A DNA stretch of 64,000 nt from Bacteroidales bacterium (GTDB lineage Bacteria; Bacteroidota; Bacteroidia; Bacteroidales; F082), in the NCBI GenBank assembly GCA_017428285.1, contig JAFRRE010000178.1:1-64000 (forward strand). The letters are read 5' to 3'. Made by a program: the position numbers and the translations under genes. Shown piece after piece: positions 1,891 to 6,724 of the stretch (position 1 is its first letter; the number at the start of each line of letters is the position of its first letter). The notes under the pieces are model-generated. The model made no database searches, was not told the origin of the DNA, and worked only from the letters and a program-made list of their open reading frames with translations.

Positions 1891-3165
1891 TTACTCCACT
1901 ACCACTTTCTGCACCGAACCTTCATCAGACTTGATGAAGTAGACGCCAGAGCGGAGCGTGAGCGTATGCGTGCCGCTCTCGGAGTGGCTTGTGGTGATGA
2001 CTTGACCGAGTGTGTTGAACACTGTTACGTCAGTTGTTCCTTCAACGGTAAACTCACCATTGGAAGGATTGGGGTAGAGTTTAAAGGTTTTGTTTTGGTG
2101 TTCGCCGATACCGACGATTCCCTCTTCGCTACGGTTGGAGAGCAATCTGCTCTCACTCTTGCCGTTTTCAACGCCTTGAACAACTACGTGTCCCTCGTTG
2201 AACTGGTTTTCTGAGCAGGTGTAGCTGGTGACACTAGCACCGACGAAGTCGATGACTGTCAGGTCACCATCCTTGGCACCTGGATACCACTCACAGATAT
2301 TGTAGCCGAGTAAGTCGTATCCAGCAGGGACATTCCAGTTGACCTCGATGGTATTGTTGATACCTGTCAAGTAAGCCATGTGGATGGTCTCTTTGGGATA
2401 GCTCACGATGGGGCATTCTGTGCCGTCTGTGGCGACAGCTGTGAGTGTGTAAGTACGGGATGCGGAACCACTACCGATATTGTCTGTGAACTGACCATCG
2501 GAGTAGGGGGCTGTACCGACCTGTAGACCGTCACGTTTCACGATGACATGGTCGATGTACAGAGCTTGTGCTGGATTGGTCTGCCATGTGATCAAGTTTA
2601 AGTTGCTCTCAAGGTCACAGGTAGCCAAGTCGATTTCGACATTCTCATTCACGATTTTCGTTCTGTATGCGGTAGCACACATGTCTGAGATTCCGGCGAT
2701 GTAGGTTCCTGCAGGTTTGTAGATGATGTTTTCTTCTTCGCCTGAACTCCATGTAATGTTGTACATGCTAGCAGAATCATCTTCTACAGCTTTGAGTTCG
2801 GCAAGTTCGCCGCCGTGAATCCAGATTTTTTCGGTGGTTTCGTTAGGTACATTTGGCTCAATGAAGTGGACAACTCGTGAGTACGAATGGTCACATCCAG
2901 CGTATTCTATGTGGCAACTTGTAGTCCCCAATAGACACATTTCAGGAGTAATAATTACAGGGTTGTCAGAAAATTCTTCTCCCTCAATTAACCATATAAA
3001 CTCAGTGCAGTCTTCAGCGGCATAAATCAGTACCGTATCGTACTTGTTTGTACATACATCTACGATGGTTTCCATGTTGTTAACATAGAAAACTGTGTCG
3101 TTTTGTGCATTAGCTGTCATTATGAAACCAAGCACAAGCATTGTCATGATGATTACCTTTTTCAT
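1891..3165 (-). CDS. Secreted protein with C-terminal T9SS sorting domain
   Basis: A 424-aa exported protein. A Sec signal peptide (MKKVIIMTMLVLGFIMTANA) is followed by beta-rich sequence with Ig/fibronectin-like stretches (RTYTLTAVATDGTECP, IEVNWNVPAGYDLLGYN). The last ~75 residues are a type A T9SS sorting domain: FKLYPNPSNGEFTVEG, a VFNTLGQVI strand and a final SGVYFIKSDEGSVQKVVV. It should cross the outer membrane through the type IX machinery and be released or anchored at the surface. Its substrate cannot be told. The 98-bp gap upstream has an AAGGAAC ribosome-binding-like site but no clear TAnnTTTG box, so its normal promoter may have been lost at the junction with the recoded gene. 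Confidence 0.85.
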   Translation of the reverse strand: MKKVIIMTMLVLGFIMTANAQNDTVFYVNNMETIVDVCTNKYDTVLIYAAEDCTEFIWLIEGEEFSDNPVIITPEMCLLGTTSCHIEYAGCDHSYSRVVHFIEPNVPNETTEKIWIHGGELAELKAVEDDSASMYNITWSSGEEENIIYKPAGTYIAGISDMCATAYRTKIVNENVEIDLATCDLESNLNLITWQTNPAQALYIDHVIVKRDGLQVGTAPYSDGQFTDNIGSGSASRTYTLTAVATDGTECPIVSYPKETIHMAYLTGINNTIEVNWNVPAGYDLLGYNICEWYPGAKDGDLTVIDFVGASVTSYTCSENQFNEGHVVVQGVENGKSESRLLSNRSEEGIVGIGEHQNKTFKLYPNPSNGEFTVEGTTDVTVFNTLGQVITTSHSESGTHTLTLRSGVYFIKSDEGSVQKVVVE

Positions 3166-3239
3166 GGACTTGTTCCTTTCTATTATTTTGTTATTGATTA
3201 TTTGTTTTTATATCTATTTTATATTGAAATAATTTTATA

Positions 3240-3257
3240 AGTCAAGCTGAATTGACT
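3240..3257 (-). terminator. Small hairpin 6 nt after the recoded gene
   Basis: AGTCAA and TTGACT (3240-3245 / 3252-3257) form a 6-bp stem with a 6-nt loop, followed on the minus strand by an A/T-rich tract. If it belongs to the recoded gene, the foreign segment extends at least to about 3225. The stem is weak, so the call is tentative. Confidence 0.35.
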
Positions 3258-3263
3258 ATTAAT

Positions 3264-5909
3264 TTATAACTCTGCTGGATATTCGCTATAATAAGTACCA
3301 GTTGCAACATCAGAAGGTTTTGGTGAAACGTAACCACAAGATATGTCATAGTTTGTAATATCGACACTAGTATTTCATGTTGCAATAGTATTTCAATTTA
3401 ATAAGTTATATCGTCAGAATTCATAAGTTCCATCCGTGTTCTTCTTGTTTTTTTTACAAGCAACATAGTATCAAACATTGTTTTTCTCATAATACATAAC
3501 GGTTCAAACTCTTTCTTCGTCACAACTTGTTGGTACACAGTTGCTTCATAATTTTACAGAACCATTTACATCCAATGTAGCCTTTGGTGTTTGTGTATTA
3601 ATTCAAACTGAATATGATTTATAACGATTTGCGCTTAGTGTCATATTCCCTGTTAAATATGTGAAGTATATGAATGCTCCACTCATGGTTCAGACTGCAA
3701 GTTCGTGGGTTCACATAATTTCGTAGTGACGGTCATTGCTATCCACATCTCATGTTGCATAAATTGTAATTATTGAACCGTGAGCATTTGGTCTTGCAGC
3801 AGTTTTATAGTTATTAGATCCTATTCATACAGCTACCATTCATCCTATTGAAGCTCACGCTCCTTTGCTGTAAACAGCACCATTTCATACGCGTAATCAT
3901 TTTTGATCGAAAGTTATACGGGTGCTTGGTCAAGCAAGACCATCACTGTTGTAAGTATAGAAATTAAATGCTCCGCTATGGTAGAAATTTGTGGCAAAGT
4001 ACAGAGGAAGATCGTCTCTGATAGGTGTAAGAACATCTTTCGTCTTAATGTTTGAAGATGAAGGGTCGTATATTAACTTTTGATCAATATCCCAAAGGCT
4101 GTCTCATCATCCAGTATAATAATTGACAATTACTCATGTATGGAAATGGACAGTTGTTCCGCTGTGGATTGTTATCCTTGTTCATGTATAAATATTTGTT
4201 ACTCAACTATCTATGTTGTAGGTGTTGTATTCGTTATATGTGTTGTTTCCTCAATCACCTCCATCGAATACACATCGGATTTCTCATGATCATTCAGGTA
4301 TTGTTCGTTGAAGGATTCAACCTTCATCTTTATTTAACGCCGCATTGAATCTATCAACAGCTTCTTGTGTCATGTATCTACAAACTTTTCCACCACTATA
4401 GTGTGTCACTTGGATTCAATCTCATCCATTACATTGACCTTCGCAGGTTGGGGCATCCTCTTTGCAGACTATGGAGCAGTCTGTTCAGTCGCTTTCATAG
4501 CTCACAGTCACTCGGGATGGGTTTGTTTTTTCTATACCTTTAATAAATTCTATACAATCTTCATTATCTTCTGCATCATTATTACAATCTAGGTTTTCAG
4601 AATATCGTGTTTGTATTTCTTTACAGTCCTCTCCACAATTCCATTCCACTGTCATGGTAACTCCTTCGCATTGGTATTTACATCGCTGTCAATGGCTTCA
4701 TGTGGCATTGACTCAGGTTCCGCCAGTTCAGTCTTCTCAATCCAGGATTTCGAAAGATCCTGTAGTATTGTCTGTAAGTGTTATCGTCACGGTTGTCGTC
4801 TTTCCGACCTTGCCTGTCGTGATTTCGGAGATTCAAAGTCAGGCAGCTCAGGTATCTCATTTCGCTCCAGTGTCTCACTGTGCTCAGGTGTTTCATTGAG
4901 GTCAGGTGATGGACTGGACGGCATTTGCTATGGTAATGGTGTTATTGTTGCTCAACCTGAAGATGATGTCGTTTCAACTAAGGTATCCTGAAGTGACATA
5001 GGCTCCAGTTGCTCAGACGGCTCCAGTGTCTCACTGTGCTCAGGTACCTCATTTCAAGGTCAACATGGCATCGACTAAGGTGATGTGACTTCCGTTACTT
5101 AATTCAAAGACAATATTATTATATTGAATGTAACCTGTGGTAACATGAGCTCAAGTGGCTCATCTTGGTCATGGTCAACCATTTCAATTTCATCATATGA
5201 CAATAGTTTTGTCTGATGGTTGGTTTAGATTGAAACTATCAAATACCTCTCATGTTTCTGTGCTTTTAAATGAGATTATGGCATTTGATGGTGTATTGTT
5301 TGTACAATTAATTGTTTTTGCGCCACTATCGTAATAACACAACATTCCGTCCGTCATGGTTCAGAGTTTTGCTTGGTTACAAACAAGATTTTCTCATTCT
5401 TTTACGCAGATGTAGTTGTCGCTTCATGTCACGTTTGGTATCGTGATGGATTTATTGCTTCACGTATTGGCACTAAATATTGTCGGCGTTGTTCACTTTA
5501 TCATCGTCAGAGTTCAGTCCTTGATACGTTCATCAAGCTGTCCACTTGTGACGAAACCTGTCAAGTTACAAACAAGTCATGTGTTTCAATCTCGTTTACA
5601 GATGTATCAAGATGTAGAAACTCATCAAGTTTTTACCAAGAGTCAGTATGTATTATAATATGTATCACCTCACCCTCCTCCTCATGTTCAATTGGCTCAC
5701 GTTGCTCATTTTGGTCAAGTCAATGTCGTTTTAGCATTTACTAATCTAATCTCAAAACCATCATCTCTTTGAAAAACTAAGTCGTCTCAGCTCCAGTATC
5801 CTGTGTTTATGCTTGCTCAATTGGCTCAAGTTGCTCATTTAGCTCCAGTCGCTCATTGTGGTCCTGTAATGGTTTGGATTGCGTTTACTAATGTTATGGT
5901 TTCATTATC
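3264..5909 (-). pseudogene. 5'-truncated UGA=Gly recoded gene: collagen-like, tail-fibre/adhesin-like protein
   Basis: Minus-strand frame from 5909 to TAA at 3266-3264: 881 codons, no TAA or TAG inside, about 77 in-frame TGA by hand count. With TGA=Gly (genetic code 25) the protein is coherent. Near 5864-5815 the G-X-Y run is GPQ-GAT-GAK-GAT-GAN-GAS, with GGA at some glycines and TGA at others; 4904-4831 holds eight such triplets. Four ~33-residue modules (pattern [TS]GY....[DN][LI][VI]F...ITLVNA...TG) alternate with these runs. Then follow a Cys-rich part (about 4700-4270), a beta-rich part (TRITIHSGTTVHFHTG) and a C-terminal VGINTQTPKATLDVNGSVK plus CDEERVGTVMYYE, as in many tail-fibre/adhesin proteins. 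TGG still encodes Trp. No start codon belongs to it; the frame meets host repeats at 5910. The Bacteroidota around it would stop at every TGA, so it should be silent there. Confidence 0.88.
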
Positions 5910-6102
5910 TCCCCTACGGGGCTTTGCCTGCCGGGGGGCAGTGTCGCTGCTGTGGGTCATCGCTCCGTAGGTCGCCGACCTACGGTTACTAAAGTATCGT
6001 CCCTTCGGGACGGGGCCTGACAGCCGCTTTGCGTCACTGCGAACGATTAGCGAAGCAGTCCATTTGTTTCAGATTTGTGGAAGATTCGTTTCCTTCCCTT
6101 TT

Positions 6103-6300: not shown

Positions 6301-6549
6301 TCATTGGGCAATGTTATCTTGTTTTTCCATCATGAGGAAACATTCCGACAGGTCGGCATTGAAGTCGTGATGCAGGATTAGGGAGATTCTCATCAGCGTG
6401 GTGGTATCGATCCAACTGCGCTGCAAGATGTGGTACACATTGTTGCGGTGGCAGCACATTTGGTCGGCAAGCCAAGCCACGCTCCGCCTTTGCCGAACGA
6501 GCTCGGCTTTGATGAGGTGTCCGATATGTATTTCTTCTTGCGTGGACAT
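6301..6549 (-). CDS. Small helix-turn-helix protein
   Basis: An 82-aa protein starting MSTQEEIHIGHLIKAELVRQ. The segment RSVAWLADQMCCHRNNVYHIL is a helix-turn-helix, followed by IDTTTLMRISLILHHDF. This layout is common among small Bacteroidota DNA-binding proteins that resemble XRE regulators. The start at 6549 removes a non-conserved N-terminal extension that would reach into the structured element upstream. It stands alone, with a 130-nt nested hairpin only 45 bp upstream. Targets are unknown; it could regulate the divergent ATPase gene, but nothing in the sequence shows that. Confidence 0.7.
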   Translation of the reverse strand: MSTQEEIHIGHLIKAELVRQRRSVAWLADQMCCHRNNVYHILQRSWIDTTTLMRISLILHHDFNADLSECFLMMEKQDNIAQ

Positions 6550-6594
6550 GTCTTTGGAGTTAGGGTATAGAAAAAGCGTGGAAGGTATTTCTTG

Positions 6595-6724
6595 CTTAGT
6601 ACTCCGGGTTTCCACGCCCGCTCCCACCTAACAAGCCTTCCACGCCGTGCAAACACGGCGTTTTGAAACTTGTTCTTAAATGGGAGTGTCCCCAAGGGAC
6701 TTTGTGGAAAATTTGAGTACTAAG
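6595..6724. repeat. 130-nt nested inverted repeat (MITE-like or structured RNA)
   Basis: Six helices nest in order: CTTAGTACTC/GAGTACTAAG (6595-6604/6715-6724), TTTCCAC/GTGGAAA (6609-6615/6704-6710), CTCCCA/TGGGAG (6621-6626/6681-6686), AACAAG/CTTGTT (6630-6635/6669-6674) and CGCCGTG/CACGGCG (6643-6649/6654-6660). Every pair is perfect and the intervening loops are short. The 10-bp terminal repeats suggest a miniature mobile element; the even spacing of helices is equally compatible with a folded RNA in the leader of the HTH gene. Confidence 0.7.

What the first reader, a model, noticed from the sequence alone, without database searches (positions are those of the whole stretch)
3264..5909. 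A UGA=glycine recoded gene embedded in a standard-code Bacteroidota chromosome segment
Hand translation of the minus strand shows 881 codons without TAA or TAG and about 77 in-frame TGA, ending in TAA. TGA alternates with GGA at the invariant Gly of collagen-like triplets (for example GPQ-GAT-GAK-GAT-GAN-GAS near 5864-5815 and eight consecutive triplets at 4904-4831), so the codon value is Gly, not Trp; TGG encodes Trp elsewhere in the frame (VEWN, SLWD). UGA=Gly is known from Absconditabacteria (SR1) and Gracilibacteria. Genes on both sides use TGA as stop. A standard gene finder sees only noise here.
Basis: partly seen in the sequence, partly recalled or inferred. Interest (0 to 1): 0.95.

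Follow-up and report, generated by a model that had tools for sequence, protein, structure and literature searches.

The report
UGA-glycine gene captured by Bacteroidales
A stretch of this standard-code Bacteroidales DNA holds the tail of a surface-type protein gene in which UGA, normally a stop, means glycine; similar genes sit beside the same secreted-protein gene in other gut Bacteroidales, so DNA has likely crossed, repeatedly, a genetic-code barrier that has been proposed to block gene exchange.

Summary
Minus strand 5909-3264 reads 881 codons with 77 in-frame TGA and no TAA/TAG until the final TAA. With TGA masked, standard-coded relatives place Gly opposite TGA in 221 of 311 positions and Trp in none. 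The gene lacks its 5' end and a start codon, is AT-rich (GC3 0.30; pooled long ORFs 0.59), and lies 98 bp upstream of a T9SS-cargo gene. It is not a one-off: the UGA=Gly family occurs in 5 of 99 genomes of the genus and in one of another family. Of eight loci, five firmly and one by its last codons have the same T9SS gene 88-113 bp downstream; one contig ends too soon and one (L037) lacks it. Among 393 genomes sampled from the order, only one outside the genus has the T9SS gene; it also has the UGA gene, next door. No UGA-reading tRNA was found in two such genomes, and 9 of 36 long ORFs here end in TGA. Best reading: recurrent capture of surface-protein genes, likely from an Absconditabacteria/Gracilibacteria-type epibiont, predicted to be silent in the host. 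No donor was found; why the genes stay open beside one T9SS gene is unexplained.

The parts
3264..5909 (-). UGA=Gly open frame, 881 codons, 77 TGA, ends TAA; 5'-truncated surface-type gene with collagen-like Gly-X-Y runs, Cys-rich middle and a C-terminal ATLDVNG domain
5905..5912 (.). 5' junction between foreign gene and host-type palindromic repeat sequence
   Evidence: frame stays open to 6206 but family homology starts at about 5909; 5910-6160 matches repeats in other Bacteroidales loci; the junction is also within P0002, listed with a longest contig of 5,540 bases
3166..3263 (-). 98-bp spacer with TTGACT-N16-TATAAA (3245-3218) and a Shine-Dalgarno-like ATAGAAAGGA (3174-3183)
1891..3165 (-). 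standard-coded T9SS cargo gene, 424 aa, signal-peptide-like start, Por_Secre_tail at residues 363-423, ends TAA
5910..6160 (-). mosaic of short host intergenic repeats (e.g. CCGTAGGTCGGCGACCTACGG) abutting the 5' end
6301..6627 (-). small ORF, related to one found upstream of UGA genes in L017 and L035 and of T9SS genes in L174 and L183; helix-turn-helix-like by my reading, no Pfam match

Best explanation
A 5'-truncated gene for a surface-type protein, written in a code where UGA means glycine, sits in a standard-code Bacteroidales contig directly upstream of a T9SS-cargo protein gene; it was likely captured from an Absconditabacteria/Gracilibacteria-type epibiont and is predicted to be untranslatable in its host. 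Shown: the code value, the missing 5' end and start codon, the foreign composition, the standard-code host, and the recurrence beside the same T9SS gene family in several genomes. Inferred: DNA of a UGA=Gly cell living on these bacteria enters them repeatedly and is joined between host repeats and the T9SS leader. The 3' side is constant (gene end, a TTGACA/TATAAT-like motif in most, then the T9SS leader) while the 5' side is cut at different points, as expected if one short anchor at the leader or promoter starts the recombination and the other end is joined by illegitimate recombination. In the host, UGA would stop ribosomes within about 20 codons here, so the insert is probably silent debris that is regularly renewed from the donor.
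For: Code: Gly 221/311, Trp 0/311 opposite masked TGA. Foreign: GC3 0.30 against 0.59 pooled for 36 ORFs of the window (single ORFs 0.34-0.75); Gly codons mostly GGA/GGT against GGC/GGT in the host. Standard host: 9 of 36 long ORFs end in TGA; no UCA anticodon among 39 anticodon types read in G039 and 33 in G112. Recurrence: UGA genes in 5 of 99 genus genomes and in G039 of another family; T9SS gene downstream in window, L017, L018, L035, L036, and in L025, where only 43 codons with 4 TGA are on the contig and homology was not tested. 5' ends vary: window in the collagen part, L017 first gene and L018 in mid gene, L035 complete with a signal-peptide-like start, L017 second gene fused in frame to the T9SS 5' end. 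The T9SS genes beside UGA genes are host-like (GC3 mean 0.55 against 0.54; one ends in TGA), so only the UGA gene looks foreign. Promoter-like match with at most 2 mismatches in 5 of 7 such spacers against 3 of 27 T9SS starts without a UGA gene (the spacers are also more AT-rich).
Against: No donor: the GTDB contig scan, with one peptide pattern, gave strong relatives only in three Bacteroidales MAGs, and 379 genomes of the phylum of a Parcubacteria-group genome gave no TGA-coded match; that sample may hold no code-25 genome at all. The seven longer genes are not decayed, although unselected copies should be. L035 and P0047 share 52 codons of upstream sequence that I take as host, yet differ by 50 of 550 residues in the gene's conserved blocks with all 30 compared TGA and all 25 GGN kept, which looks like selection or repeated refilling at one site. 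Five UGA genes and their T9SS neighbours give the same pruned topology (1 in 15 by chance), and the only non-genus genome with one has the other, which looks like a travelling pair rather than repeated chance capture. L037 lacks a T9SS start in the 169 bases after its UGA gene.
Confidence: 0.56

Rival explanations
1. The UGA gene and the T9SS gene form a unit that selection keeps in Bacteroidales: UGA is somehow read as Gly there, or the untranslated gene is kept as a reservoir.
For: Seven genes open over 881, 738, 877, 425, 425, 444 and 400 codons; TGA and GGN strictly kept in the conserved blocks between L035 and P0047; in 393 order genomes the pair occurs together in G039 and each family in no other non-genus genome; same pruned topology for five loci.
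Against: No UCA tRNA; TGA is a stop for 9 of 36 long ORFs here and for 12 of the 46 other T9SS copies with a stop in view; this copy has no start codon; codon use is foreign; the first UGA gene of L017 falls in the other clade.
Confidence: 0.1
2. The intact relatives (L035 type) give a short secreted peptide that ends at the first UGA and acts in the host, for example as a decoy against the epibiont's own surface protein; this window's copy is a dead remnant.
For: First TGA at codon 94 in L035 and (as Trp) in P0045, P0046, P0048, P0049, with 7 GGN and no TGA before it in L035 (P about 0.001 at its own later ratio; the copies are near-identical there, so not independent); L036 0 TGA among 6 from a start point that I chose; the L017 fusion carries a T9SS signal-peptide-like start in frame.
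Against: P0050-P0052 have it at codon 19; the start of L036 is unclear; no expression data.
Confidence: 0.08
3. The donor is a code-25 phage and the gene a tail fibre.
For: Collagen-like fibre repeats; weak PHROG tail-fibre match E 1.8e-4; code-25 phages are reported (PMC10746230, abstract).
Against: Signal-peptide-like start in intact members (by eye); no match in IMG/VR (only a 29-residue ATLDVNG match) or INPHARED.
Confidence: 0.12
4. Assembly chimera of epibiont and Bacteroidales contigs.
For: The relatives are MAG-type assemblies; L037 has an undetermined residue in the gene; repeats flank the junction.
Against: Both sides of the window's insert are Bacteroidales-type; the 5' junction recurs in P0002 (longest contig 5,540 bases) and the L035 upstream stretch in P0047 (4,514 bases); the same arrangement in several assemblies, one a 330-kb contig.
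Confidence: 0.07
5. TGA means Trp or another residue, or the frame is chance.
For: A database entry reads it as Trp (P0002).
Against: Trp 0 of 311; shuffles reach 411 codons at most.
Confidence: 0.01

Closest known systems
Genetic code 25 (UGA=Gly) of Absconditabacteria/SR1 and Gracilibacteria
   Same: UGA alternates with GGN at glycine positions
   Different: Here the gene lies in a standard-code Bacteroidales contig; no relative was found in any genome of those lineages
Phages that use a reassigned stop codon in standard-code hosts (e.g. Lak phages, UAG=Gln)
   Same: Recoded genes inside standard-code bacteria
   Different: No suppressor tRNA found, no viral relatives found
PTD-repeat surface protein shared by a gracilibacterium and Colwellia (PMC6851277, passages)
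   Same: A UGA=Gly lineage and a standard-code bacterium share surface-protein sequence; hypervariable gene
   Different: There only a short repeat is shared, TGA is not used in either repeat region, and convergence is held at least as likely
T9SS type A cargo proteins (PF18962 / TIGR04183)
   Same: The neighbouring gene carries the sorting domain
   Different: Multi-copy family with Shine-Dalgarno leaders, in some cases preceded by a UGA=Gly gene

Membership tests
Code-25 gene (Absconditabacteria/Gracilibacteria) | UGA encodes Gly | tested here: met
   Gly 221/311, Trp 0/311 opposite masked TGA
Code-25 gene (Absconditabacteria/Gracilibacteria) | Homologue in a genome of that lineage | tested here: inconclusive
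   None by the GTDB contig scan (one peptide pattern) or in 379 genomes of a Parcubacteria-group genome's phylum, which may include no code-25 genome
Code-25 gene (Absconditabacteria/Gracilibacteria) | Genome has tRNA-Gly(UCA) | tested here: not met
   Tested in host-side relatives G039 (44 RF00005 hits over the cut-off) and G112 (36): none with UCA; the window's own assembly is not held
Suppressor-tRNA recoding as in recoded phages | UGA-reading tRNA near the gene or in the genome | tested here: not met
   One tRNA-Arg in the window; none in L017-L019; none with UCA at 47 of 65 pattern places or in G039 and G112
Phage tail fibre | Relatives in phage genomes | tested here: not met
   IMG/VR; INPHARED; only weak collagen-type PHROG matches
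Collagen repeat family PF01391 | Pfam match | tested here: not met
   No Pfam family at E 0.1, although Gly-X-Y runs of 6, 6, 6 and 8 triplets are present
T9SS cargo (neighbour gene) | C-terminal sorting domain above cut-off | tested here: met
   PF18962 40.5 bits, cut-off 27; TIGR04183 42.8 bits, cut-off 23

The most novel reading that the evidence does not exclude
The UGA=Gly gene and its T9SS partner are a travelling pair that selection maintains in standard-code Bacteroidales: either UGA is read as glycine for this gene in the host, or the host expresses only the UGA-free first part as a secreted peptide aimed at the UGA=Gly epibiont from which it was taken.
Probability: 0.15. Interest if true: 0.96.

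Novelty: new variant of a known kind. Interest (0 to 1): 0.82.

Why it matters
UGA reassignment has been speculated to isolate Absconditabacteria genetically from their neighbours, preventing competitors from acquiring their genes by HGT (discussed in PMC8080830, passage read). Here DNA in that code sits repeatedly in another phylum, at one class of site. If the donor is an epibiont, the inserts are a fossil record of who lives on whom, readable from genomes alone. If the genes are kept by selection, it is a case of a coding barrier being used rather than merely crossed. A standard-code reading shows only short pieces of such genes, so more may be waiting.

Tried and rejected
Rejected: TGA=Trp; one-off chimera; residence of the T9SS gene in the UGA=Gly donor (its GC3 equals that of other T9SS copies and L036's ends in TGA). 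Led nowhere: viral contig scans, INPHARED, the Parcubacteria-phylum sample, a TGA-coded VDHGKT pattern to recognise code-25 genomes (one hit in 379 genomes; read it showed no such gene), C-terminal structure prediction (mean pLDDT 45, not searched further), Rfam on the window (one tRNA). The UCA-tRNA patterns gave 22 hits against 5 for the reversed control in nine genomes and 51 against 28 in six, i.e. above control; several are tandem repeats, ARAGORN found no UCA tRNA at the 47 places fetched, and 18 of the 65 distinct places were not read. A tree of UGA genes needs at least six changes of the Bacteroidales label, but the other rows have no known location, so this does not count captures. 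Stop codons of UGA-adjacent T9SS genes (4 TAA, 1 TGA, 1 cut off) do not differ tellingly from the rest (23 TAA, 12 TGA, 11 TAG, 2 cut off). Literature searches for transfer of recoded genes into Bacteroidota returned no such report in their listings (one search was on rumen occurrence); only openly licensed PMC papers are searched. Papers: PMC10746230 abstract and passages; PMC8080830 passages; PMC6851277 passages; PMC9976891 start of abstract in a search listing only.

Full report
Observation. The minus strand of 3264-5909 is open for 881 codons if TGA is sense, with 77 TGA, and ends in TAA. Shuffles that keep dinucleotides reach at most 411 codons in 1000 trials. TGA sits at glycine positions of Gly-X-Y runs. 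To test the value without assuming it, TGA was masked and the protein compared with the 22 other proteins of the first protein search: in 33 alignments, 221 of 311 residues opposite TGA are Gly and none is Trp; GGN codons face Gly in 142 of 241. These alignments overlap and lie in the collagen-like part, so they are not 311 independent tests. In the conserved C-terminal region of six family members, non-TGA residues opposite TGA are Gly 57, then Ser 14 and Asn 14, and Trp 0.

What it is. The frame is open to 6206, but 5910-6160 matches repeats of other Bacteroidales loci and no start codon precedes the family homology, so this is a 5'-truncated gene. Intact relatives in the protein database begin M(T/K)(T/R)R..TKVLLSLLA...NAYTF or similar and are 701-909 residues long on contigs of 3-9 kb; P0047 has 52 extra residues before that. 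Their Trp-rich sequences show that TGA was read as Trp. No Pfam or NCBIfam family matches the window's gene. The C-terminal structure prediction was too poor to use.

Setting. The window's own assembly is not held; the nearest genome shares 46% of the window's words. Three relatives carry record titles 'Bacteroidales bacterium', one from goat reticulum (RGIG3192), one Tb.RUG.344, one SRR11784281_bin.64. Thirty-six ORFs of 250 aa or more, chosen not to overlap much, end in TAA 18, TGA 9, TAG 9; their pooled GC3 is 0.59 against 0.30 for the UGA gene. The neighbour at 1891-3165, 98 bp downstream, is a 424-aa T9SS cargo protein, GC3 0.53.

Recurrence. Searching 60 relatives with the protein found TGA-coded matches next to the homologue of the T9SS gene. 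A profile search of 99 genomes of the genus found the family in five: G022, G112, G018, G116, G095. G039, of another family, has it on a 330-kb contig. With this window that is seven assemblies and eight loci. The T9SS gene lies 88-113 bp downstream in window, L017, L018, L035, L036 and L025. In L036 the usual ATG of the T9SS gene is absent and the distance is to the next ATG. In L025 only the last 43 codons (4 TGA) of the upstream frame are on the contig and homology was not tested. L019 ends 49 bases after its gene; L037, whose gene holds an undetermined residue, ends after 169 bases and shows no T9SS start there, an exception. L017 has two UGA genes in a row, the second fused in frame to the leader, signal-peptide-like start and about 60 codons of a T9SS gene. 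In 393 genomes drawn from the order, at least five of them of the genus, the UGA family was found only in G039 (three further weak hits carry no TGA) and the T9SS family, at E 1e-20, only in G001 of the genus and in G039; in G039 they are 92 bp apart. In a tree of 54 T9SS copies those next to UGA genes pair as window+L017 (100/99) and L035+L018 (100/100), while L036 and L025 pair with copies from G095. Among the UGA genes, window pairs with the second gene of L017 (91/85), and L035 and L018 share a clade with database proteins between them. Pruned to these five loci (with L036) both trees have the same topology, a 1 in 15 chance; the first UGA gene of L017 falls in the L035/L018 half and breaks this match if it is counted.

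Host decoding. No tRNA with anticodon UCA was found. Pattern searches gave more hits than the reversed control (22 against 5; 51 against 28), some of them tandem repeats; ARAGORN found no UCA tRNA at the 47 of 65 places that were fetched. The RF00005 hits over the cut-off in G039 (44) and G112 (36) were all fetched and read by ARAGORN as 39 and 33 anticodon types without UCA. These are MAGs and may lack some tRNAs; G022 was read only in part and G018, G116 and G095 only by patterns. The T9SS copies beside UGA genes are ordinary host genes: GC3 mean 0.55 against 0.54 for the others, and L036's ends in TGA.

Mechanism. The 3' side is nearly constant: gene end, a TTGACA/TATAAT-like motif (at most 2 mismatches in 5 of 7 spacers against 3 of 27 T9SS starts without a UGA gene; AT-richness may help), then the T9SS leader. 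The 5' side differs from locus to locus. T9SS loci L174 and L183 have the related small upstream ORF and no UGA-gene match at those places in the genus search; they are likely empty sites. I infer capture with one short anchor at the leader and an illegitimate join at the other end, from a UGA=Gly donor whose genes stand in a row with promoters between them. The donor is inferred from the code: known UGA=Gly lineages are Absconditabacteria and Gracilibacteria (PMC10746230 abstract; PMC8080830 passages), and Vampirococcus, of the first group, is an epibiotic predator with ComEC and type IV pili (PMC8080830 passages). That Absconditabacteria occur in the rumen is supported by the search listing only.

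What does not fit. Silent copies should decay, but the seven longer genes are open throughout. L035 and P0047 share 52 codons of upstream sequence at full identity, then diverge along the gene while keeping all 30 compared TGA and 25 GGN in the blocks of 80% identity or more. I take that upstream stretch as host because the DNA further upstream matches L017 at 84% over 549 bp and by eye it holds a repeat seen before the T9SS gene of L174; if it is donor DNA this argument falls. It could be repeated refilling of an occupied site by homologous recombination with donor alleles, or selection in the host. In L035 the first TGA is at codon 94, with seven GGN and no TGA before it; P0045, P0046, P0048 and P0049 have their first Trp there too. 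A 93-residue secreted peptide would be the standard-code product. P0050-P0052 have it at codon 19. L036 shows a GC3 fall from 0.75 to 0.17 along the gene. No relative in a code-25 genome was found; the scan of GTDB contigs used one peptide pattern and the Parcubacteria-phylum sample may hold no such genome.

Verdict. Silent capture from a UGA=Gly epibiont is the most likely reading; a maintained pair is the exciting alternative.

Noticed in passing
1891-3165 and 53 T9SS starts in fetched loci: This T9SS gene family carries Shine-Dalgarno leaders: matches of 6 or more bases to AAAGGAGGT in 35 of 53 starts against 8 of 79 control ORFs (the controls include some T9SS genes and overlapping loci), although Bacteroidia ribosomes are reported not to recognise them (PMC9976891, abstract start in the listing).
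   Followed up: partly
L020-L023, L166, L171, L186, L187; window 6560-6680: T9SS genes without a UGA gene are often preceded by short structured repeats of type GCGTGGAA...TTCCACGC; a copy lies upstream of the UGA gene here. Nature unknown, no Rfam match in the window.
   Followed up: no
212-1723: HTH gene, HipA N-terminal domain gene and HipA C-terminal kinase gene in a row, like a split, HipBST-type toxin-antitoxin set (name recalled).
   Followed up: no
L017:11885-15496: Two UGA=Gly genes in tandem; the second has the leader, signal-peptide-like start and about 60 codons of a T9SS gene fused in frame to its body.
   Followed up: partly
L036:3584-4915: UGA gene with GC3 falling from 0.75 to 0.17 along its length and no TGA in its first 60 codons: partial host adaptation, or a mosaic of donors.
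   Followed up: partly
L035:9761-9790 (-): Bacteroidota-type promoter-like TTTG-N17-TATCTTTG about 140 bp upstream of the intact UGA gene (by eye; consensus recalled).
   Followed up: no
P0026-P0035: Relatives on contigs of 1-4 kb share long blocks in different combinations, as in a recombining, hypervariable surface-protein family.
   Followed up: no
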